Positions 25,700 through 35,138 of a stretch of 38,513 nt of DNA are shown here, one piece after another. The stretch lies in the NCBI GenBank assembly GCA_944329195.1, contig CALVHX010000007.1:1-38513 (forward strand), written 5' to 3'. The translations under genes were made by a program, and so were the position numbers. A model generated the notes under the pieces. The model was not told where the DNA came from and did not search any database. It saw only the letters and a list, made by a program, of their open reading frames with translations. Position 1 is the stretch's first letter; each line of letters starts with the position of its first letter. This DNA comes from an uncultured Bacilli bacterium. Its GTDB lineage: Bacteria > Bacillota_I > Bacilli_A > RF39 > UBA660.

Positions 25700-26631
25700 T
25701 GATTATAATTATTTTAATTTTAATTTTGACGCTTATTTTGTGCTCTCTTTGGGAAGTTTCTTTTTCTGGTCTTAATATAATTAGAATTAAGAAAATGGCA
25801 GAAAATAACGATAAAAGGGCGATTATTGTATATGATCTTAGTAATAAATATTCAGAGACAATAACAACGATTTTAGTAATTAATTGTATTTGTAGCATAT
25901 CTGTATCTTCTGTTGCTACTTATTATTTTTCTAAAATATATGGAGATAGTTGTGTTTGGCTTGTAACACTAATTCTTACTTTAGTAATTTTGATATTTAG
26001 CGAAATTATTCCTAAAATATTAGGAAGAGAGTATTCTGAATATTTTGCTTTAAAGTTTTGTAAACCTTTGAGATTTTTAGTTATATTACTTTCTCCAGTT
26101 AGTAAAATTGTTGACATATTTGAAAAAAAGATAAAAAATACGCATAGAGTAACCGCTACTAAAGAGGAGTTAGTTGAAATCGTTAAAACAATTAAAGATG
26201 AAGGAGTTATTGAAGAGAGTGAAAGTATATTTATTCAAAAGGCAGTATTGCTTAAAAAATTAAGAGTACAAAATGTTATGGTAAATAGAGAGTCCGTCTC
26301 TTACCTTTATGATACTGATTCATCTTTAAAAGTAAGAGAATATGTCTTTAGGGATAAACATGACAGAATTCCTATTATTACTAAAGATAAAAAGGCTGTT
26401 GGTATTTTGTATGAAGTTGATTTGTTAGATGAAATATTGACGGATGGTTCTATTAGTATTAAAAAGAATATGAAAGAACCAATATGTGTCAGTAGAGGAA
26501 TGAGTTTAGCCTCTTGTTTAGAAATATTAAACAAATCTAAAGCTCATATGGCTTTGGTTGTCGACAGAGATAATACGTTTTTAGGAATTGTCACTATTGA
26601 AGATATAGTTAATGAACTTATGAGATCTTAA
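25696..26631 (+). CDS. CNNM/CorC-family membrane protein with CBS domain pair
   Basis: 311 residues. An N-terminal membrane domain (DUF21/CNNM, about 1-130) has ILTLILCSLWEVSFSGLNII and ILIFSEIIPKILGREYSEYF; the SEIIPK motif is characteristic. A CBS pair follows, ending in KAHMALVVDRDNTFLGIVTI then EDIVNELM. It lacks the C-terminal CorC_HlyC domain of longer members, so it is a short form. Such proteins are linked to Mg2+ or other cation export. It overlaps the preceding gene by 4 bp (ATGA), indicating a two-gene operon. Confidence 0.88.
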   Translation: MMIIIILILILTLILCSLWEVSFSGLNIIRIKKMAENNDKRAIIVYDLSNKYSETITTILVINCICSISVSSVATYYFSKIYGDSCVWLVTLILTLVILIFSEIIPKILGREYSEYFALKFCKPLRFLVILLSPVSKIVDIFEKKIKNTHRVTATKEELVEIVKTIKDEGVIEESESIFIQKAVLLKKLRVQNVMVNRESVSYLYDTDSSLKVREYVFRDKHDRIPIITKDKKAVGILYEVDLLDEILTDGSISIKKNMKEPICVSRGMSLASCLEILNKSKAHMALVVDRDNTFLGIVTIEDIVNELMRS

Positions 26632-26644
26632 TGAAACAACTATA

Positions 26645-26673
26645 TTGTTTGTTATTTATTTTTATGCTATTAT
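26645..26673 (+). promoter_or_regulatory. Promoter of the rRNA methyltransferase gene
   Basis: TTGTTT (26645-26650), 17 bp, then TATTAT (26668-26673) with an extended TGC before it. Confidence 0.55.
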
Positions 26674-26689
26674 ATATTTGTGATGATTT

Positions 26690-27874
26690 ATGAGAGTTAA
26701 GATTGATAAAATATCTCATGATTTTAAAGGTATATGTAATGTGGATAATAAGGTCATTTTTGTTCCTGGTACTTTTCCCGGTGAAATCGTGGATATTAAG
26801 ATTGTTAAAAATACGAAAAAGTATTCGGAAGGTAAAGTCATATCTTTTGTTGAGGTGAGTGAAAAGAGAGAAGAGTCTAAATGTCCATACTCTAGGATAT
26901 GCGGTGGGTGTAGCATTTCACATATTGAGTATATAATGTCTTTACAGTACAAAAAAGATATAGTGGTTGATATTATAAAAAGGTATGCTGATATTAATAT
27001 TGATCCTAGTATTATTTCTAATGGTGAGGTATATGGATATCGTAATAAGGTGTCTTTTAAGATACTAGAGGGACATCTTGCTTTAACAGAAGAAAAATCT
27101 AATAAACTTGTAAAAGTTAATCAATGCTTGTTAGCTAATGGTAATATTAATAAAGTTGTTAGGTTAATTAATGATATTAATCTTAAATATGTTACCGATG
27201 TAATTATCAGAGGCTCTCAAGATATAATGGTTATTTTTAATGGTAGAATTGATAAGGATAGTGTTATTAGTATTCTTTCTGGGTATGTTTCTAGTATAAT
27301 TTTAAATGGAGAAACTATATATGGCCGTAATCATATAACTACTAATGTAAATGGATATGAGTTTGCTATTTTTCCTACTTCTTTTTTTCAAGTTAATACT
27401 AATATGATAAAAAGTTTATATGATAGGATACTTAAGTACGCTAAAGGTGGAAGGTCGTTACTTGATTTATATTGTGGCGCTGGAACGATAGGTATTTATT
27501 TAGCTAATAGTTTTGAGTTAGTTAGAGGTATTGAGATTAATAAGGATGCTATTCGTGGAGCTAATTTGAATAAGCAGATAAATAACATAAATAATATTAC
27601 TTTTGAGTGTAAAAATGTTGATGATATGGGCGAAATATCGGAAGATGTCGTAGTGGTCGATCCTCCTAGGAGTGGTCTTGATAGAAATGTCATTGATAAA
27701 TTATTGAGTAGTGAAGTAGAAAAGATAATATATGTTTCTTGTAATCCTATTACCTTTGCGAGAGATTTAAATATATTGAAAGTAAAGTACAAATTAGAAG
27801 ATATTGTTTTATTTGATATGTTTCCTAATACTAGACATGTGGAATGCGTAACTTTACTACAAAGAAAAGATTGA
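26690..27874 (+). CDS. 23S rRNA (uracil-5-)-methyltransferase, RlmD/RlmCD (RumA) family
   Basis: 394 residues. An N-terminal TRAM-like domain (about 1-55, FVPGTFPGEIVDIKIVKNTK) precedes iron-sulfur cluster ligands C65, C71 and C74 in CPYSRICGGC, with the fourth probably the Cys of VNQCLLA. The SAM-binding domain has SLLDLYCGAGTIGIYLA and VVVDPPRSGLD, and the catalytic Cys lies in IIYVSCNPITFARDL. It methylates U at C5 in 23S rRNA; Firmicutes members may modify two sites (RlmCD). The leader is short and the ribosome binding site weak (GTGATG). The accessory segment starts right after it, so this gene marks the left boundary of conserved sequence. Confidence 0.93.
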   Translation: MRVKIDKISHDFKGICNVDNKVIFVPGTFPGEIVDIKIVKNTKKYSEGKVISFVEVSEKREESKCPYSRICGGCSISHIEYIMSLQYKKDIVVDIIKRYADINIDPSIISNGEVYGYRNKVSFKILEGHLALTEEKSNKLVKVNQCLLANGNINKVVRLINDINLKYVTDVIIRGSQDIMVIFNGRIDKDSVISILSGYVSSIILNGETIYGRNHITTNVNGYEFAIFPTSFFQVNTNMIKSLYDRILKYAKGGRSLLDLYCGAGTIGIYLANSFELVRGIEINKDAIRGANLNKQINNINNITFECKNVDDMGEISEDVVVVDPPRSGLDRNVIDKLLSSEVEKIIYVSCNPITFARDLNILKVKYKLEDIVLFDMFPNTRHVECVTLLQRKD

Positions 27875-28099
27875 TAGAAATGTTTGTTTTTCAAGTGTTT
27901 GGGGACTATTATAGATTTCCAAAAGTAGATGAAAATAGTCACTTAAAAGTACTAGAAAATAAAATTTTAGTAAGTATATGTACGATATTAGAATTAGGAA
28001 ATACATGACTAAATCACTAATAAATATAAGTAAAAAAGAAATTTAATGATGTGTTACTAGAACTAATAGTATTTTTCTTGTAAAATTTTTTGAAATATA

Positions 28100-28131
28100 T
28101 TGATTTAAATGGAAATTAATGGTATTATAAT
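28100..28131 (+). promoter_or_regulatory. Promoter of the DUF2797-HIT-TIM barrel operon
   Basis: TTGATT (28100-28105), 17 bp, then TATTAT (28123-28128) overlapping TATAAT (28126-28131). Transcription should start near 28137, almost at the first base of the 5' stem of the leader. Confidence 0.6.
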
Positions 28132-28137
28132 GAAAAT

Positions 28138-28228
28138 TTATTTAAATTCCAATTAAATTAATTAGTTTTGGAGGAGGAGGGCCTTATTTTAGGCCCGTTT
28201 TTTTGGAATTTAAATTGTAAAGGAGGTA
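28138..28228 (+). promoter_or_regulatory. Attenuator-like 5' leader
   Basis: An 11-bp perfect helix ATTTAAATTCC (28140-28150)/GGAATTTAAAT (28205-28215) encloses a polypurine GGAGGAGGAGG (28170-28180) and a terminator hairpin GGGCCT (28179-28184)/AGGCCC (28191-28196) with a T-tract to 28204. The true ribosome binding site AAAGGAGGT (28219-28227) follows. The GGA repeat overlaps the first bases of the terminator stem, so anything binding the repeat could open the terminator. No T-box consensus is visible. Confidence 0.6.
28179..28204 (+). terminator. Terminator hairpin inside the leader
   Basis: GGGCCT/AGGCCC stem with a 6-nt loop, then G and seven T. It lies upstream of the coding sequence, as in attenuators, and would release an RNA of about 67 nt. 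Confidence 0.75.
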
Positions 28229-28231
28229 AAA

Positions 28232-29164
28232 ATGAAAAAATATTTTGTAGGATTATGTTGGAATGAAGAATATAAACCATATTTTCATTTAAAAGATTAT
28301 GAATCTGGTCTTGATGAATTTATCGATATTCCACAAGAGTTATTGATTGAACGAATTAATCAAAAAATATGTATTGGAACAATAAATCCATATACTAGCG
28401 AATATATAAGCTGTAATAATATTATTGAAGATAGTAGTTCACAATGTAATCATTGTAAATATATGTTTGATTTTTATAAATGTGTTAGATGTCATGGAGA
28501 TGATTGTTATGTAAAAAACGGAGATGTACTTAAATATTGTAATACACCTCATTATGTTTATTTAGCATATTTTCCAAATGGAAAAATCAAAGTTGGGACA
28601 GCTTCTGAAATAAAAAAATATAATAGACTATTAGAACAAGGTGCCATTTTTTCTATATTTATTGCTAAAACTCCAACTGGTAAAATTGCTAGGCAAATTG
28701 AAAAAAATGTAATTGATAATGGTATAACTGGTGCAGTGACAACAACTTATAAAATGAAAAATATTGTTTTTGATAGTGAAGAAAAATTAATAAGAAAAGA
28801 ACTTATAGAAAAATATAAAGATATTTTAAAATTATTTGCTGGAGATAATAAAAAATATTTAATAGAACCGGAATTTAATTCATTTAATGAAATAAAAGAT
28901 AAAATTGACAATAATATGTTATTGTCAAACATACAAGTTAATTTGTTTGATGAAGAAAATAAACAGATTAAACCATATATAATAAAAAAAGAATTTGATA
29001 GAATTTTTGGCGTATATTTGTTTTGTGTTGGTAAAGTATTGGCTGTCAAAAACAATGGAATTATAGAATTAATAGATACAAAAAAAATGGAGGGATATTT
29101 GTTTGAATTTAAAAATATTAAAAATTTAAATACAGATAGAGTAATAAAATTTTTAGGGGGGTAG
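28232..29164 (+). CDS. DUF2797-family protein with Cys-rich cluster
   Basis: 310 residues. A cysteine cluster, CNHC then CVRC and CYVKN...YC (about residues 72-108), looks like a metal-binding module. It is followed by HYVYLAYFPNGKIKVGTASE and then RLLEQGA, which match the conserved core of DUF2797, a family of unknown function whose core (VYLA...KVG....R...QGA) recalls the GIY-YIG nuclease fold. ARQIEKNVID, with its conserved Glu, fits the same domain. The C-terminal 100 residues are a separate beta-rich region. It is the first gene after the attenuator and abuts the HIT gene with no gap. GIY-YIG-like activity is a hypothesis; no function is established. Confidence 0.75.
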   Translation: MKKYFVGLCWNEEYKPYFHLKDYESGLDEFIDIPQELLIERINQKICIGTINPYTSEYISCNNIIEDSSSQCNHCKYMFDFYKCVRCHGDDCYVKNGDVLKYCNTPHYVYLAYFPNGKIKVGTASEIKKYNRLLEQGAIFSIFIAKTPTGKIARQIEKNVIDNGITGAVTTTYKMKNIVFDSEEKLIRKELIEKYKDILKLFAGDNKKYLIEPEFNSFNEIKDKIDNNMLLSNIQVNLFDEENKQIKPYIIKKEFDRIFGVYLFCVGKVLAVKNNGIIELIDTKKMEGYLFEFKNIKNLNTDRVIKFLGG

Positions 29165-29827
29165 ATGAGTATGCAAAAAAGTATGTGTCCTTTTTGCGAA
29201 GAACAAAAGAATAGAAATATTAGTATAGTTAATAAAAGTAGAATACTCGCTGAAACTGATAATTTTGTAGTTTTTCCAACAACTGGAGGATTTGTTGAAA
29301 ATTATCAACTAATAGTTCCTAAAAAACATATTAACTGTTTTGGTGAATTATTAAAAGAACAATTAATAGAATTAAAAAGTATTATTTTATGGCAAAAACA
29401 AATAAATAGAAAATATTTTAATTCAAATAGTTCTATGTTTGAACACGGTTCATTACATCCTACTAATGAAAGCGGTAAAAGTATAGTTCATGCACATTTA
29501 CATATCTTTCCCAACAATATTTCATTGTTAGATGAAATTAAGAAATATAATTTTAATATCCAATCAATTGAAGGCATAGAACAATTAAGTGCATTGTGTC
29601 AAAAATATGATAATTATTTATATTATAGCGATATAGATGGCAGAGATTATTTTATTACACATGAAGGAATACCATCACAATTCTTAAGGATGCTACTTGC
29701 AAAAACACAAGGTATAGAAACTTGGAATTGGAGGAATTATCCTCTTATTGAAGCAATAGAAAATAATTTAGAATTTTATGAAGAAAATTCATTGATTTAT
29801 ACAAAAAAGAAAGTAGGTGTAAAATAA
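29165..29827 (+). CDS. HIT-superfamily protein (GalT/HIT-like nucleotide hydrolase or transferase)
   Basis: 220 residues. An N-terminal CPFCEEQ zinc-type knuckle is followed by a HIT domain with YQLIVPKKHINCFGEL and the triad HAHLHIF (H109, H111, H113), which forms a nucleotidyl-His intermediate in HIT enzymes. The C-terminal extension (about 125-220) has FITHEGIPSQFLRMLLAKTQ and ends in WNWRNYPLIEAIENN, larger than a simple HINT protein and reminiscent of GalT/Ap4A phosphorylase-type members. The substrate is probably a nucleotide or nucleotide-linked metabolite. It shares one base with the next gene (TAATG), so translation is coupled. Confidence 0.82.
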   Translation: MSMQKSMCPFCEEQKNRNISIVNKSRILAETDNFVVFPTTGGFVENYQLIVPKKHINCFGELLKEQLIELKSIILWQKQINRKYFNSNSSMFEHGSLHPTNESGKSIVHAHLHIFPNNISLLDEIKKYNFNIQSIEGIEQLSALCQKYDNYLYYSDIDGRDYFITHEGIPSQFLRMLLAKTQGIETWNWRNYPLIEAIENNLEFYEENSLIYTKKKVGVK

Positions 29828-30612
29828 TGATTATATTGCCTAGTGAAGAATATAATAATCCAAATAACGAAAAAATAACAACATATCAATTTTTATCTAA
29901 TGTAGGATGTCCTGTTTTTGATAGTGTGTTATTTGATGAAAGCGAACCAATTACCAAAGAAAAACTAATAACATTAAAAGAAGTTTTACAATCTGAGTAT
30001 TGTACTATAAGGTATCAATATGTTAGGCCAAGTATTAATCCGATTAGAGGAGGTAATAAGTCTAAAATTGATTTAGACGAATTAAAAAGTAAGCAAGTAG
30101 ATGGAACACAAATGTGGTTGTTACAGCCAATTGATAGAACAAAAAATATATATGGAATTAACATGTATGTAAATAAAAAAATGGAGTCACTTATAATTGA
30201 AAGTGTAGGAAAAGGATTTGATGTATCTGATTTAAATAGAGGTGACATGTCTCCCCAAGAAAGTATCTATTTAAATTATCCTATTGTATATGGTTGGCAA
30301 AAAGAATGGTGGAAATATATTAAATTAAATTTTGTAAATCAAGAACAATTTAATCAAGACAAATTAATAAGATTAAATAAATTAAGAAAATTTGGTCTAA
30401 ATCCTAGTGAGGATATATTTGATAAGCAGTTTGTTCCAATGGATTATGGTCTAATTGAAAAATTACTTAGTCATATTCAATCAATTGATAAAAATTGGAA
30501 TAAATCAGATGAATATACTGTATCAATATCTATGAATTCAAATGGAAAATTAGTGTTCTGGGATATTCAAACTCCAGTAGGAAAATCAAAAATATTAAGG
30601 AGGACAAAATGA
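29827..30612 (+). CDS. Unrecognised protein, possibly ATP-grasp-like
   Basis: 261 residues, no signal or membrane segment. I do not recognise a family with certainty. Features include a start resembling an ATP-grasp lobe (TTYQFLSNVGCPVFDSVLFD), a charged strand TIRYQYVRPSINPIRGGNKS with paired Gly, and a conserved-looking block LIIESVGKGFDVSDLNRGD ahead of Ser-Pro-Gln-Glu. The C-terminal SISMNSNGKLVFWDIQTPVG has the alternating pattern of a final sheet. ATP-grasp enzymes ligate carboxylates to amines or thiols. The gene overlaps both neighbours, so it is an integral part of the operon. Confidence 0.6.
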   Translation: MIILPSEEYNNPNNEKITTYQFLSNVGCPVFDSVLFDESEPITKEKLITLKEVLQSEYCTIRYQYVRPSINPIRGGNKSKIDLDELKSKQVDGTQMWLLQPIDRTKNIYGINMYVNKKMESLIIESVGKGFDVSDLNRGDMSPQESIYLNYPIVYGWQKEWWKYIKLNFVNQEQFNQDKLIRLNKLRKFGLNPSEDIFDKQFVPMDYGLIEKLLSHIQSIDKNWNKSDEYTVSISMNSNGKLVFWDIQTPVGKSKILRRTK

Positions 30613-31496
30613 ATTTAATACCAATAACATATCATTCTAAAAAATATCCGGTAGGTGTAATTAGTACTATAGATGAAATAGCAGGGAATTTTGATAAAGA
30701 TTCAATTAATCCTCAACGCCGATATTCATTGCATACAGAATATTCTCATATGAAAAGAAAATTAGATAATCAATTAATTAATAAATTTCCTGAATTAAAA
30801 GCATCAGAAAGAGATAATGTGCCTCAATTATGGAAAAATAAGGAATGGGCAAAAGAGTTTGCAAATTTTATAATTGAACTAATAGATAATAATATATCTC
30901 CTGAAATAATAGAAATTCATCCACCATTTAATGATTACTGTAAAGATTTTTCTGATTTTTTTGATATATATGAAGAGTTTGAAAAATTGATATTAAAAAA
31001 ATTCCCAAATGTTAAAATTTTTATTGAGAATAGATGTGGCACATTTTATAGGGGAGGGAAATTTATAATTTCAAATGGCAAGTCAATAATTCAATTTTTA
31101 CAAGAATTACAAAAGAGAAATTTAAATTTAAAACTAGTTCTTGATTATCCACAAGTTTTTAGTGCAGAAGCCATAAAAATGGATGATATTAAATTAAAAA
31201 AAATAATTGATTTTAATAATAATATTAAGCAATATATTTTATATATTGGTGGATTTCATCTATGGGGAAAAAGAAAAAGTCAAACCGGAAGATGGACTTC
31301 ACATACTGGTGATTTAAATACTTTTTTTAGTAATAATGATTTATTGAAAGATGAATTTATAAATTCTGTAATTGATACTTTTGATGATAATATGGTAAGA
31401 TATTTTGTACCTGAGGTTAATAGTAGCGAAGAGGATTTACAATCAATTATTAATGATTTATTAAAATATGATGTTAAATTTGAGTTAGGGGATTAA
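30609..31496 (+). CDS. Endonuclease IV / xylose isomerase-like TIM-barrel protein
   Basis: 295 residues, starting with ATGA overlapping the previous stop. Barrel strands carry likely metal ligands in order: EIIEIHPPF, VKIFIENRC, LKLVLDYPQVF, LYIGGFHLWGK, WTSHTGDLNTFF and VRYFVPEVNS. This follows the spacing of the AP-endonuclease 2/sugar isomerase superfamily (Glu, Asp, His, His, Glu around a di- or trinuclear site), although the second His of the LDxxH motif is absent. Members act as sugar epimerases or isomerases, AP endonucleases or, in the MNIO branch, peptide-modifying oxidases. Substrate unknown. Last gene of the coupled set; the next gene has its own promoter. Confidence 0.75.
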   Translation: MNLIPITYHSKKYPVGVISTIDEIAGNFDKDSINPQRRYSLHTEYSHMKRKLDNQLINKFPELKASERDNVPQLWKNKEWAKEFANFIIELIDNNISPEIIEIHPPFNDYCKDFSDFFDIYEEFEKLILKKFPNVKIFIENRCGTFYRGGKFIISNGKSIIQFLQELQKRNLNLKLVLDYPQVFSAEAIKMDDIKLKKIIDFNNNIKQYILYIGGFHLWGKRKSQTGRWTSHTGDLNTFFSNNDLLKDEFINSVIDTFDDNMVRYFVPEVNSSEEDLQSIINDLLKYDVKFELGD

Positions 31497-31512
31497 AAAA
31501 AGGTATTAATTA

Positions 31513-31521
31513 TGCTATAAT
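31513..31521 (+). promoter_or_regulatory. Extended -10 promoter of the second HIT gene
   Basis: TGCTATAAT, with TATAAT at 31516-31521, 24 bp before the ATG and followed by a strong AGGAGG ribosome binding site. Confidence 0.55.
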
Positions 31522-31544
31522 GATTATTGTAGGAGGTAATCGTT

Positions 31545-31922
31545 ATGAAAAAATGTGTTTTTTGCGGACAATTTATACCAAATAGAAAACCTTTATTTGA
31601 AAATAAATTAGCTGTTGCATATTTTGATGAATTTCCGGTTAGTAAAGGGCATACACTAATTATTACAAAAAGACACGCTGAAACCTTTTTTGATATAACT
31701 GATGAAGAGCAAATTGCAATAATTGAATTATTAAATAAGTGCAAAAAATATATAGATAAAAAATATAATCCAGATGGATATAACGTTGGATTAAATTGTG
31801 GTGAATCAGCAGGACAAAGTGTTATGCATATACATATGCATTTAATCCCTAGATATAAAGGTGATGTTGAAAATCCACGTGGTGGTGTTAGAGGAGTAAT
31901 ACCAAATAAAAAAAATTATTAA
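31545..31922 (+). CDS. HIT family protein (HINT-type)
   Basis: 125 residues, the usual size of HINT-type proteins. CVFCGQFIP at the N-terminus is a half zinc knuckle; FPVSKGHTLIITKRHAETFF and the triad HIHMHLIPRYKGD (H95, H97, H99) are diagnostic. HINT proteins hydrolyse nucleoside phosphoramidates and adenylated side products. It is much more canonical than the HIT protein in the upstream operon. It has its own promoter and an AGGAGG site and lies 12 bp ahead of the MazG-like gene. Confidence 0.93.
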   Translation: MKKCVFCGQFIPNRKPLFENKLAVAYFDEFPVSKGHTLIITKRHAETFFDITDEEQIAIIELLNKCKKYIDKKYNPDGYNVGLNCGESAGQSVMHIHMHLIPRYKGDVENPRGGVRGVIPNKKNY

Positions 31923-31934
31923 GGAGAATTAAAG

Positions 31935-32264
31935 ATGGAGAGAATATATAATAAATTAGTAAGAGATAAAATTCCAAATATAATAAAAGAAAAAGGAGAA
32001 ACCCCAGTTGTAAGAATATTAGATGAAATTGAATATAAAAATGAATTGGAAAAAAAATTATATGAAGAGTATAAAGAAGTAATTGAATCAACGGGTGATG
32101 ATCGTGTAGAAGAATTAGCCGATATGTTAGAAATAATTAGAACGTTAGCTAATTTAGAAAATAGACATTTAAATGATGTCATAGCAATTGCTGATAAAAA
32201 AAATGAAAAACGTGGTGCTTTTGATGAAAAAATTTTTCTTGAAAAAGTCATTGAATCAGAATAA
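31935..32264 (+). CDS. MazG-like nucleotide pyrophosphohydrolase (PRA-PH-like)
   Basis: 109 residues. The start YNKLVRDKIPNIIKEKGETP is typical of the phosphoribosyl-ATP pyrophosphohydrolase-like branch of all-alpha NTP pyrophosphatases. The metal-binding pattern ExxE...ExxD is visible as LYEEYKEVIE and VEELADMLE. No histidine biosynthesis genes are nearby, so a housekeeping role, removing non-canonical nucleotides, is more likely than a his-pathway role. The preceding HIT gene likewise acts on nucleotide by-products; both share a transcript. Confidence 0.88.
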   Translation: MERIYNKLVRDKIPNIIKEKGETPVVRILDEIEYKNELEKKLYEEYKEVIESTGDDRVEELADMLEIIRTLANLENRHLNDVIAIADKKNEKRGAFDEKIFLEKVIESE

Positions 32265-32386
32265 AAAACATACTATATTATGAAAATCTGGTTCAAAATC
32301 AATTCTTTAAAAAATTAAATGTGTTAGATATTAAAGTATCTGAAAAAATCTAAAATTTATCAAAATAAGAAGGTGATAACGATAAA

Positions 32387-33502
32387 ATGAAGAAATTAAT
32401 ATTACCAAATTATGAAAATAGTATTGTAAACGTAGTGTGCAGTATAAGAAAGCACTTTTAACTGAATTATAATCATAATACGATAGTAAGATAGATAAAA
32501 TCTTAGAAGAAAAAGGACCTAAAAATGTTGTAATAATGCTTTTTGATGGTATGGGAGCAAAACTACTAAAAGAAAAATTATCAAAGGATAGTTTTTTACT
32601 AAAATATCTAGCTAGTGAAATATCATCAGTAGTCCCTTCTACAACAACAGCTTCCACGACATCTATGCTATCGGGCTTGACGCCTATAGAACATGGTTGG
32701 ATTGGATGGGACTTGTATGTAAAAGAAGAGGATAAAATAATTACAATGTTAACTAATAAATTAAAGGATACTAAAATAGGAGCTTCGGATTATAATGTTT
32801 CTAAAAAATATTTTCCGTATGATTCAATAACAAATTCTATAAACAAAATAGGAAAATACTATTCAAAAATACTTTTTCCATTTGGTGAAGATGGCTATAA
32901 AGATATTGATGATATGTTAATAAAAGTAAAACAAAATATAAACAAGAAAAGAAGAAATTATATTTATGCATATTATGAGGATCTAGATGGAATAATGCAC
33001 GATACTGGAACGATAGTAAAAGTACATTAGAATGTTTTAAAATGATAAATAAAAAAGTAGAAGAATTTTCGTAAGATATAGAAGACACACTTGTCATAGC
33101 ATTAGCGGATCATGATCATATAAACTGTGAGGAAATAATTTTATCAGATTATGAAGATTTATTTAACACATTAGATGGTGATGTATTGGTAGAAGGTAGA
33201 ATGTGTGCATTTAAAATTAAGGAAGAAAGAAAAAAGAAATTTGAAGAATTATTTAATAAATGTTTTATGGAGGATTTTATATTAAAGACAAAGGATGAAG
33301 TAATCTGTGAAAAAATATTTGGAGATGGTATAAAAATAAATATTTCGATTCATCACTAGGGGATTATTTTGCTCTGGCGATAGGAAATAAATATTTCAAA
33401 TATACAAAAGAAGGGAACTATTTTAAATCAGCACATGCTGGATTTACGATAGATGAAATGAAAATACCTTTAATTATTATTAATAAAAAAAGTATGCTAT
33501 AG
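32387..33502 (+). pseudogene. Decayed type I phosphodiesterase/nucleotide pyrophosphatase (alkaline phosphatase superfamily)
   Basis: An intact start (AAGGTGATAACG then ATG at 32387, MKKLILPNYENSIVNV) hits TAA at 32459. The catalytic metal/nucleophile block, VVIMLFDGMGAKLL and SSVVPSTTTASTTSMLSGLT, continues in another frame (32521-33030). The next part, STLECFKMINKKVEEF then DTLVIALADHDH, with the second metal site, lies in a third register with an internal TAA at 33071. After a further shift near 33330 the end YFKSAHAGFTIDEMKIPLII is readable to 33502. At least two frameshifts and two stops make it non-functional. The intact form would hydrolyse phosphodiesters or nucleotides. Confidence 0.85.
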
Positions 33503-33864
33503 TCCGAGTTTATCAGCTGTTAAACGTAAAAATCACTATGATTTCTTTGTTTTATAGAGTATTATAGTGCTTTTATTATTGTCATTTCTGTCATAATCTA
33601 AAGAGGATAATTCAATTGGATATAGTAGTGCAATAGAAAATAAGTTTTGATATATGAATTAGATGATGATATTAAAGTTGAGGTTATTTTGAAATAAGAA
33701 AAATTTTGGCTCATTCAAGAACAAATAGGTAAATTGTGTAATAAAACTAAATATACAGTTAATGAATATATAAAAATATATTTGATTAGTTTTTTGATAA
33801 AGTAAGTGACATAAAGTGAAAAATCCTTTAGGGAAGGTATTATATTTTAAATTGAGGTGGTAAT
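33503..33864 (+). other. Gene-free region with remnants
   Basis: 362 bp. It starts after the dead phosphodiesterase. CACTAT (33534-33539)/ATAGTG (33564-33569) is a weak hairpin followed by CTTTTATTATT. A RhuM-like remnant occupies about 33644-33832. Just before the VOC gene come TATTAT and an AGGTGG ribosome binding site. I see no intact gene. Confidence 0.6.
33644..33832 (+). pseudogene. RhuM-family remnant
   Basis: The frame from 33644 reads LIYELDDDIKVEVILK, a stop (TAA at 33695), then EKFWLIQEQIGKLCNKTKYT and VNEYIKI before further stops. This matches the start of RhuM/virulence-associated proteins (IY...DG.IKVEV.L...TVWLTQ.QIAELF....STVNEHIKNI), whose N-terminus is a DNA-binding-like helical motif. 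Only the first third remains. RhuM genes are typical cargo of mobile or restriction-type accessory regions, which suits the surroundings. Confidence 0.65.
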
Positions 33865-34251
33865 ATGGAATTTAACAGTCTTATACCTGAACTTAGTGTT
33901 TCTAATATTGATAATAGTATTAAATTTTATAAGGATATTGGTTTTGAGATTATATATGAAAGAAAAGAAGATAAATTTTGTTTTTTACAGTTGGAAAAAA
34001 ATCAGATAATGATTGAGCAAGTAAATGATAACTGGAATACTGGTGTTCTCGAATATCCATTTGGTAGGGGAATAAATATAAGTATGTCAGTAGGTAATGT
34101 TGATTTGTATTATGATAAAATAGTTAAAAGTGGTGTCAAAATATTTCGAGATATGAAAATTAGTAAGTATCGTGTCGATAATACTATCTATGAAGATAAG
34201 GAGTTTTTAATTCAAGACCCAGATGGATACTTACTGCGATTCAATAATTGA
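33865..34251 (+). CDS. VOC-superfamily (glyoxalase/bleomycin-resistance-like) protein
   Basis: 128 residues, the normal length of a single two-repeat VOC unit. It opens with LIPELSVSNIDNSIKFYKDI then GFEIIYE, and ends with FLIQDPDGYLLRFNN, both characteristic of bleomycin-resistance-type VOC proteins. Metal ligands are not obvious: the final Glu of DPDGxLxE is replaced by Arg-Phe. A binding rather than enzymatic role is likely. Its codon style, including a GTCGAT near 34173, resembles the first 28 kb rather than the segment before it. The ribosome binding site is AGGTGG. Confidence 0.85.
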   Translation: MEFNSLIPELSVSNIDNSIKFYKDIGFEIIYERKEDKFCFLQLEKNQIMIEQVNDNWNTGVLEYPFGRGINISMSVGNVDLYYDKIVKSGVKIFRDMKISKYRVDNTIYEDKEFLIQDPDGYLLRFNN

Positions 34252-34442
34252 AGTGGGAGTACTGAGTTATGGACACTGATGTGAGAGAAGATGTTTATTT
34301 TAATGTTGATGAAGTAAGTATATTTAGGGAATTACTTATTTCTTTTTTATAGTATTTAGGTAGTTATTTAATACATTACTATTTAAGTACAGTAATAAAA
34401 AGAGAGTAGTTTTATTTATTGTAAGCTATTAAACTAAAAACA

Positions 34443-34451
34443 TGATATAAT
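34443..34451 (+). promoter_or_regulatory. Extended -10 promoter of the bceRS-like genes
   Basis: TGATATAAT, with TATAAT at 34446-34451; no good -35. It lies about 25 bp before the start codon. Confidence 0.5.
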
Positions 34452-34475
34452 TAGTAGTGAAATGTGGTGATTAGT

Positions 34476-35138
34476 TTGAAAACAATAATGATTGTTGAAG
34501 ATGATAGAACAATACGTGAGGAGTTAATACATCTTTTGGAAACTTCTGGATACAAAGCAGTGACATTAACAACATTTGATAATATATTAGGAGATATCTT
34601 AAGTAATAAGTTTGATTTATTACTTTTAGATATAAACTTACCAAATGTAAATGGAGAACTTATCTTACGTGAGTTTAGAAAAAAATCTAATACCCCAGTA
34701 ATTATGGTAACTAGTAGAGTTAAAGAAACAGATGAGGTTTTATCTATGTCCTATGGTGCAGACGATTATATTACAAAACCATATAATCCAACTATATTAC
34801 TTTTAAGAATTGCTAATATCTTTAAAAGAATGGAAAATAATACAAGTACATCATATTATGATGGTGTATTAGTATATCAAAACAAAGGAATGCTCGTAAA
34901 AGATGATAAAGAGTTAGATCTAACTAAAAACGAAATGATTATATTCTCCTGTTTACTTTCTAACAGAGGAAATATTGTAACACGTGATGAGTTAATGACA
35001 GAACTATGGAATAACGAAGAATACGTAAATGAAAATGCCCTAACAGTAAATATTAGTAGATTAAGAGCTAAATTAGAAGAATTTGGGATAGAAAACGCAA
35101 TAGAAACAAGAAAAGGACAAGGTTATAAATTATTATGA
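34476..35138 (+). CDS. bceR: BceR-like response regulator (OmpR/PhoB family)
   Basis: About 220 residues from TTG at 34476, giving the usual MKTIMIVEDD start with TGGTGA just ahead; two in-frame GTG codons at 34464/34467 are alternatives. The receiver domain has the acidic pair in VEDD, the phosphoacceptor D52 in LLLLDINLPNVNG and the Lys in DDYITKPYNP. The C-terminal winged helix carries LTKNEMIIFSCLLSNRGNIV and ENALTVNISRLRAKLEEF. The sequence and the following BceS/BceAB genes identify it as a peptide-antibiotic response regulator. It overlaps bceS by 4 bp. Confidence 0.9.
   Translation: MKTIMIVEDDRTIREELIHLLETSGYKAVTLTTFDNILGDILSNKFDLLLLDINLPNVNGELILREFRKKSNTPVIMVTSRVKETDEVLSMSYGADDYITKPYNPTILLLRIANIFKRMENNTSTSYYDGVLVYQNKGMLVKDDKELDLTKNEMIIFSCLLSNRGNIVTRDELMTELWNNEEYVNENALTVNISRLRAKLEEFGIENAIETRKGQGYKLL

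What the first reader, a model, noticed from the sequence alone, without database searches (positions are those of the whole stretch)
28138..31496. Four-gene operon of unknown function: DUF2797 + HIT/GalT-like + possible ATP-grasp + EndoIV-like TIM barrel
The genes overlap or abut (29164/29165, 29827, 30609), so they are translationally coupled, yet none fits a named pathway. The mix of a Cys-cluster/GIY-YIG-like protein, a nucleotidyl-His enzyme, a possible ligase and a metal-dependent TIM barrel could make or repair a nucleotide-linked compound, or act in defence or RNA/DNA damage processing. It lies in an accessory segment with decayed genes and foreign-looking codon use. This is the best candidate here for an undescribed system.
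Basis: partly seen in the sequence, partly recalled or inferred. Interest (0 to 1): 0.72.

Follow-up and report, generated by a model that had tools for sequence, protein, structure and literature searches.

The report
Mobile two-pair nucleotide-enzyme operon
A rare gene cassette that recently jumped between uncultured gut bacteria carries two pairs of enzymes with no known pathway (one pair is fused into a single protein in a related bacterium), probably to process nucleotides, perhaps in defence against phages or rival mobile elements.

Summary
The four ORFs are real, abutting, intact and under purifying selection (omega 0.11-0.27). They belong to a six-gene block (28232-32264; the last two are HinT-like and MazG-like) that is 92-94% identical in three uncultured Bacilli MAGs. 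The adjacent rlmD/rumA gene is only 39-42% identical in two of these genomes, so the block moved recently. In the window and in G425 it sits directly behind rumA, a known target of serine-integrase elements.

DUF2797 and HIT are confirmed. The HIT protein is a ~220-aa subfamily resembling human CWF19L1 over most of its length. 'ATP-grasp' (gene 3) and 'EndoIV' (gene 4) are not supported by any profile.

The set resolves into two pairs. Gene 4 + DUF2797 is one 585-aa fusion protein in another genus (G654). HIT + gene 3 are neighbours in Streptomyces phage-plasmids, beside a cysteine desulfurase. The full four-gene set was seen only in recent copies of this cassette. Distant gene-4 relatives lie beside Gabija, Wadjet and a candidate defence system.

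Best reading: an undescribed, mobile nucleotide- or nucleic-acid-processing operon, plausibly a conflict system. The chemistry is inferred, not shown.

The parts
27840..28095 (+). Probable left end of the integrated element: 3' end of rlmD/rumA plus the non-coding stretch behind it (exact att point not resolved)
   Evidence: 88.8% nt identity with G425 from 27720 to 28450 although the rumA proteins are 42% identical; the stretch after the rumA stop also follows rumA in G427 before diverging near 28095
28104..28131 (+). Candidate promoter (TTTAAA-16-TATAAT)
   Evidence: Consensus scan only, and hits are no more frequent than in shuffles
28179..28203 (+). Hairpin with T-run about 30 nt upstream of the DUF2797 start: terminator or leader attenuator
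   Evidence: GGGCCTTATTTTAGGCCC-GTTTTTTT; G425 has GGACC...GGTCC, one compensatory pair change. One terminator-like site is also the chance expectation
28232..29164 (+). Gene 1, DUF2797 protein with Cys-rich N-terminal part and K-V-G-T motif
   Evidence: Pfam PF10977, 5.4e-13; fused to gene 4 in G654
29165..29827 (+). Gene 2, ~220-aa HIT subfamily with CWF19/CwfJ-like C-terminal extension; motifs EHG and HAHLH
   Evidence: Profile-profile 98.7% to ordinary HIT proteins; best PDB match CWF19L1 over profile positions 26-202, E 2.5e-10
29827..30612 (+). Gene 3, no known family; paired with the HIT gene in Streptomyces
   Evidence: BLASTP E 3e-9 to L012:6636-7574; no profile match
30609..31496 (+). 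Gene 4, predicted metal-dependent alpha/beta (TIM-barrel-like) enzyme of no known family
   Evidence: 40% identical to a Thermococcus plasmid protein, 63% to the G654 fusion; invariant H42, E44, H104, E140, D179, H217, H232, E269
31545..31922 (+). HinT-like HIT protein, part of the same mobile block
   Evidence: Pfam HIT 4e-25; conserved in L004-L006
31935..32264 (+). MazG-like / PRA-PH-like nucleotide pyrophosphohydrolase, last gene of the block
   Evidence: Weak PRA-PH match; conserved in L004-L006; homologs near the HIT gene in Streptomyces and in the gene two downstream of it in Caulobacter
32286..32327 (.). Right limit of DNA shared with L004, L005 and L006
   Evidence: blastn ends at 32286, 32318 and 32327

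Best explanation
A mobile, rare accessory operon behind rumA made of two enzyme pairs. Pair A: DUF2797 with gene 4, a predicted metal-dependent alpha/beta (probably TIM-barrel) hydrolase or lyase; they act together, as their fusion in G654 shows. Pair B: an active-looking HIT nucleotidyl-His enzyme (CWF19-like architecture) with gene 3. HinT and the MazG-like pyrophosphohydrolase are probably house-cleaning enzymes that destroy aberrant nucleotides or nucleotidyl adducts. Most likely mechanism (inferred): the operon processes an unusual nucleotide or nucleotide-capped nucleic acid. The HIT enzyme transfers or releases an NMP group through a nucleotidyl-histidine intermediate, gene 3 supplies or accepts the partner group, and the gene 4/DUF2797 pair cuts or converts the product with bound metal. 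The purpose is probably conflict with phages or other mobile elements. Shown here: gene structure, selection, recent transfer, the two pairings, the HIT motif, conserved metal-type residues, the defence neighbourhoods of gene-4 relatives. Not shown: any activity, substrate, or defence phenotype.
For: Recent transfer: block 92-94% nt identical vs rumA 42%/39% aa. Same rumA site in G425; large serine recombinase about 1 kb after the block in L005; rumA is a known serine-integrase target (PMC4701971). Purifying selection on all six genes, omega 0.09-0.27. Fusion of gene 4 (63% id, E 1e-122) with DUF2797 (27%, E 3e-15) in G654. HIT + gene 3 side by side in two Streptomyces plasmids. HIT triad HAHLH intact. 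Eight His/Asp/Glu invariant from gut Bacilli to Thermococcus. Nucleotide theme: MazG/PRA-PH genes near the HIT gene in Streptomyces, Parabacteroides, Caulobacter, a dCTP-deaminase-like gene in Streptomyces, DUF2797 next to QueD/QueE/FolE/thymidylate kinase. Defence context of gene-4 relatives: Gabija GajA/GajB (E 4e-221, 8e-183) and Wadjet JetA/JetB, PDC-M26A.
Against: The full four-gene set occurs only in recent copies of one cassette, so pair A and pair B may be unrelated cargo. The G654 fusion lies among housekeeping genes without pair B. The Cohnella gene-4 relatives keep only part of the metal-type residues. HIT homologs in Rhizobium and Lactococcus sit with a cysteine desulfurase in what looks like metabolism, not defence. 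No PADLOC hit for the window proteins.
Confidence: 0.38

Rival explanations
1. Passenger cargo: two unrelated two-gene modules (gene 4 + DUF2797; HIT + gene 3) plus house-cleaning hydrolases stacked at the left end of an integrative element; the operon is not one system.
For: Each pair occurs without the other: G654 fusion without HIT/gene 3; Streptomyces HIT/gene 3 without gene 4 or DUF2797. The four-gene set is seen only in near-identical copies.
Against: Tight, conserved spacing with overlapping starts across all copies and similar purifying selection on all six genes.
Confidence: 0.27
2. Small-molecule pathway: the cassette makes or modifies a nucleotide-linked, perhaps sulfur-containing, metabolite; HIT and gene 3 are biosynthetic, HinT and MazG give self-protection.
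For: A class V aminotransferase/cysteine desulfurase gene is beside the HIT gene in Lactococcus, Rhizobium and Streptomyces. The Rhizobium cluster adds PfkB kinase, Glycos_transf_3 (nucleoside phosphorylase/TrpD type), methyltransferase and a PhyH-like ORF.
Against: No cysteine desulfurase, transporter or carrier gene in the window cassette; gene-4 relatives are in defence regions.
Confidence: 0.2
3. RNA or DNA damage processing: nuclease-like DUF2797, EndoIV-like gene 4, CWF19-like HIT acting on modified nucleic-acid ends.
For: HIT protein resembles CWF19L1, a spliceosome/lariat-associated protein family, beyond the HIT domain. The best, non-significant DUF2797-GIY-YIG segment puts the two motifs in register.
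Against: No profile support for GIY-YIG (0.3%) or EndoIV (1%). The GIY-YIG-type Arg position is not kept in the G654 DUF2797 domain (alignment). The host already has a normal Nfo.
Confidence: 0.15

Closest known systems
Human CWF19L1 / CwfJ family (HIT-like CwfJ_C_1 plus C-terminal extension)
   Same: Gene 2 aligns over both the HIT domain and the C-terminal 'QF.R..lA...dWR' region; 7 of 9 family members hit CwfJ_C_1 weakly
   Different: Gene 2 has an intact HAHLH triad and EHG motif where CWF19L1 reads HHLQLQ; no N-terminal metallophosphoesterase-like domain; the window protein itself is not among those listed for CwfJ_C_1
DUF2797 (PF10977)
   Same: Gene 1 is a member (49.7 bits)
   Different: Only one of 295 Bacillota genomes sampled has it (the window's own); here it is tied to gene 4, a link not found in the papers searched
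Endonuclease IV / AP_endonuc_2 TIM barrels
   Same: His/Glu/Asp residues at predicted strand ends (H104, E140, D179, H217, H232, E269), the kind of set used for metal binding in that superfamily
   Different: No detectable profile similarity to EndoIV
rumA-specific serine-integrase elements (ICE/IME) of streptococci and clostridia
   Same: Cargo joined to the 3' end of rumA; a large serine recombinase in a related copy (L005)
   Different: No integrase left in the window; conjugation genes were not looked for; cargo is not one described
Thermococcus barophilus pTBMP1 TERMP_RS11025
   Same: Full-length homolog of gene 4, 40% identical
   Different: Stands at the end of a DUF2357-PDDEXK / AAA operon, without DUF2797, HIT or gene 3

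Membership tests
HIT superfamily | H-x-H-x-H-hydrophobic motif and HIT fold | tested here: met
   HAHLHI, three His invariant in nine members; hhalign 98.7% to ordinary HIT proteins
CWF19/CwfJ family | CwfJ-type C-terminal extension after the HIT-like domain | tested here: met
   hmmsearch to CWF19L1 covers profile 26-202, E 2.5e-10, beyond the HIT domain
CWF19/CwfJ family | Eukaryotic spliceosomal role | not testable with these tools
   Bacterial host; no experiment possible
DUF2797 (PF10977) | Curated profile score of at least 25 bits | tested here: met
   49.7 bits, residues 43-206
GIY-YIG nucleases | Profile similarity and the catalytic Tyr/Arg/Glu set | tested here: not met
   hhalign 0.3% against 16 sequences, mostly UvrC N-terminal domains; Arg position lost in G654
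Endonuclease IV (AP_endonuc_2) | Profile similarity to AP_endonuc_2 | tested here: not met
   1%; not among Pfam matches
Endonuclease IV (AP_endonuc_2) | TIM-barrel fold with a three-metal site | tested here: inconclusive
   AlphaFold model too poor (pLDDT 44); alternating strands and helices and eight invariant His/Asp/Glu fit but do not prove it
ATP-grasp | Profile similarity or ATP-grasp fold | tested here: not met
   No Pfam or PDB match; 0.1% to PPDK_N. Other ATP-grasp subfamilies were tested only through Pfam scanning; fold not modelled (pLDDT 34)
Known anti-phage systems (PADLOC 2.0.0) | Match to a system's proteins | tested here: not met
   No hit for the four proteins
rumA-site integrative element | Cargo joined to the 3' end of rumA | tested here: met
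   Window and G425 (L048), shared sequence across the rumA 3' end
rumA-site integrative element | Serine integrase and flanking direct repeats | tested here: inconclusive
   Recombinase present in L005, none in the window; no second att copy found in the window

The most novel reading that the evidence does not exclude
A new kind of mobile immunity operon in which a CWF19-like HIT enzyme and gene 3 handle a modified nucleotide or nucleotidyl adduct, and a DUF2797-guided metallo-enzyme (gene 4) is the effector; HinT and MazG limit self-toxicity. Gene 4 would found a new family of defence-associated metal enzymes shared by archaea and bacteria.
Probability: 0.17. Interest if true: 0.8.

Novelty: new variant of a known kind. 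Interest (0 to 1): 0.5.

Why it matters
It gives the first functional partner, found here as a protein fusion, for DUF2797, a domain of unknown function in archaea and bacteria. It defines a metal-enzyme family absent from Pfam that spans gut Bacilli and hyperthermophilic archaea and keeps turning up near defence systems. It also shows a bacterial HIT subfamily with the CWF19 layout and an intact catalytic triad. If it is a conflict system, it is small enough to test directly in laboratory strains.

Tried and rejected
1) Structure: AlphaFold on genes 3 and 4 with only near-identical homologs gave pLDDT 34 and 44; a Foldseek search with the better model had no hit at E <= 0.001 and was discarded. 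2) EndoIV, GIY-YIG and PPDK_N assignments by profile-profile comparison: negative while the HIT control was positive. A first GIY-YIG run used only one template because my motif filter was too strict and was redone with 16. 3) Viral collections: eight scans gave no relative; two DNA-pattern matches (L075, L076) were inspected and are chance matches in unrelated phage genes. 4) Phage genomes (INPHARED): none for gene 4, the HIT gene or the gene-3 homolog. 5) The HIT profile matched 269 of 392 Bacillota genomes, but these are ordinary ~140-aa HIT proteins (at most 46 bits versus more than 200 for the subfamily), so they do not count as co-occurrence. 6) I considered gene 3 related to the ATP-grasp-like part of a Caulobacter protein because of look-alike motifs; hhalign gave 0.15%, so I dropped it. 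7) A search for a second copy of the rumA-end sequence (attR) in the window found none, nor did a search for displaced rumA ends. 8) No Rfam family in 26000-34500. 9) Weak single Pfam hits (DUF2671, SUKH_6, DUF7674) are below their cut-offs and were not used.
Full report
Observation. The four ORFs exist exactly as described: 28232-29164, 29165-29827, 29827-30612 and 30609-31496, abutting or overlapping by a few bases. The window is contig 7 of a 1.12-Mb draft genome. Two further genes on the same strand, a HinT-like HIT protein (31545-31922) and a MazG-like protein (31935-32264), belong to the same conserved block.

Copies elsewhere. A scan of about 85,000 prokaryote genomes for gene 4 found three further records, all uncultured Bacilli MAGs. 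DNA comparison shows one unbroken match from the first codons of DUF2797 to 32286-32327, 92-94% identical, carrying all six genes where the contig reaches that far (L005 begins inside gene 3). In an order-wide sample of 365 genomes, gene 4 occurs in three: the window's own, G619 (match coordinates and contig number equal to those of L004, so probably the same genome) and G654. In 392 genomes of the phylum, gene 3 occurs only in the window's own genome; DUF2797 occurs in one of 295.

Recent transfer behind rumA. The gene just upstream is rlmD/rumA (26690-27874). Its product is 55-63% identical in genomes of the same genus but only 42% and 39% in G425 and G427, two of the genomes that share the cassette at 92-94% nt identity. 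In G425 the contig with rumA runs straight into DUF2797 and overlaps L004 by 77 identical bases, so the cassette is again directly behind rumA. G427 has the same stretch after its rumA but different DNA beyond about 28095. L005 has a large serine recombinase (Resolvase + Recombinase + zinc ribbon) about 1 kb after the MazG-like gene. Integration of serine-integrase elements into the 3' end of rumA is documented (PMC4701971). The window itself has no integrase match, and the stretch 32331-33860 looks decayed. All six genes are intact in all copies as far as the contigs reach and have dN/dS 0.09-0.27.

Gene 2. The HIT motif is intact (HAHLHI). Nine relatives from Bacillota, Bacteroidota, Actinomycetota and Pseudomonadota form a subfamily of about 210-225 aa with 15 invariant residues, including E93-H94-G95 and the His triad. 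The subfamily profile scores members above 200 bits and ordinary HIT proteins below 46. Its best PDB match is human CWF19L1 over profile positions 26-202, beyond the HIT domain.

Gene 3. No family was found. Its only relatives outside the cassette lie directly downstream of the HIT relative in two Streptomyces plasmids, followed by a cysteine desulfurase. This pairing in another phylum is the best evidence that genes 2 and 3 work together. The ATP-grasp reading rests on appearance only.

Gene 4. No family was found. A Thermococcus barophilus plasmid protein is 40% identical over the full length; two Cohnella plasmid proteins are distant relatives (66.6 and 62.0 bits for the best domain). Eight His/Asp/Glu (H42, E44, H104, E140, D179, H217, H232, E269) are invariant in gut Bacilli, G654 and Thermococcus. 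The pattern suits a metal-dependent barrel enzyme, but similarity to EndoIV is undetectable, and the predicted model is too poor to decide.

The fusion. In G654, a genome of the same family but another genus, one 585-aa protein carries gene 4 (63% identical) followed by a DUF2797-like domain (27% identical, E 3e-15). Fusion of two genes that are separate elsewhere is strong evidence for a shared function. No HIT, gene-3, HinT or MazG homolog lies near it. The operon therefore resolves into two pairs: gene 1 + gene 4, and gene 2 + gene 3.

Neighbourhoods. The Thermococcus gene follows a DUF2357-PDDEXK / AAA pair whose AAA protein matches the candidate defence family PDC-M26A. The two Cohnella relatives are each followed by a ~352-aa protein; one unit lies near Gabija and the other near Wadjet. 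Around the HIT subfamily, MazG/PRA-PH genes recur (window, Streptomyces, Parabacteroides, Caulobacter), as do cysteine-desulfurase-like genes (Lactococcus, Rhizobium, Streptomyces). DUF2797 in Streptomyces plasmids lies in a block with QueD, QueE, FolE and thymidylate kinase. MazG-like genes are common in general, so that link is suggestive only.

Interpretation. Shown: a real, selected, recently mobile operon, and two independent pairings. Inferred: a nucleotide-centred chemistry, with a nucleotidyl-His enzyme, house-cleaning pyrophosphohydrolase and phosphoramidase, and a metallo-enzyme tied to DUF2797. More weakly inferred: a role in conflict with phages or mobile elements, from the defence neighbourhoods of gene-4 relatives and the element-borne location. 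The main rival is that pair A and pair B are independent cargo. I put the nucleotide/conflict reading at 0.38 and the passenger reading at 0.27.

Novelty. No member of the four-gene set matches a catalogued defence family, and the few papers that mention DUF2797 assign it no function relevant here. The enzyme classes are partly known, so I call it a new variant of a known kind rather than categorically new.

Noticed in passing
L008:7152-9859 and L144:5005-7716 (Cohnella herbarum plasmid): A repeated two-gene unit (549 aa with a C-terminal gene-4-like half, plus ~352 aa) occurs twice on one plasmid, once near Gabija and once near Wadjet: a candidate defence unit of its own.
   Followed up: partly
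window 28179-28203: Hairpin plus T-run just upstream of the DUF2797 ribosome-binding site, with a compensatory pair change in G425: possible transcription attenuator of the operon.
   Followed up: partly
window 32331-33860: Decayed stretch with a truncated type I phosphodiesterase/nucleotide pyrophosphatase ORF (32536-33030).
   Followed up: no
window 33865-34251: Glyoxalase/bleomycin-resistance-like (VOC) protein right after the decayed stretch.
   Followed up: no
L016:1504-8310 and L113:1-6136 (Streptomyces plasmids): Conserved block of 7-deazaguanine genes (QueE and FolE in both, QueD in L016), two proteins without Pfam match, thymidylate kinase, DUF2797, methyltransferase and NUDIX; in L016 it lies next to phage portal genes: possible DNA hypermodification cassette.
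   Followed up: partly
L013:2792-9344 (Rhizobium leguminosarum pRL1): Unannotated cluster with ORFs resembling SDR and RidA, then PfkB kinase, cysteine desulfurase-like, HIT-220, Glycos_transf_3, methyltransferase and PhyH: looks like a nucleoside-type biosynthetic cluster.
   Followed up: no
L014:7204-9651 (Caulobacter rhizosphaerae plasmid): 815-aa protein with an unassigned N-terminal part and a C-terminal MazG-like domain, encoded two genes after the HIT-220 homolog.
   Followed up: partly
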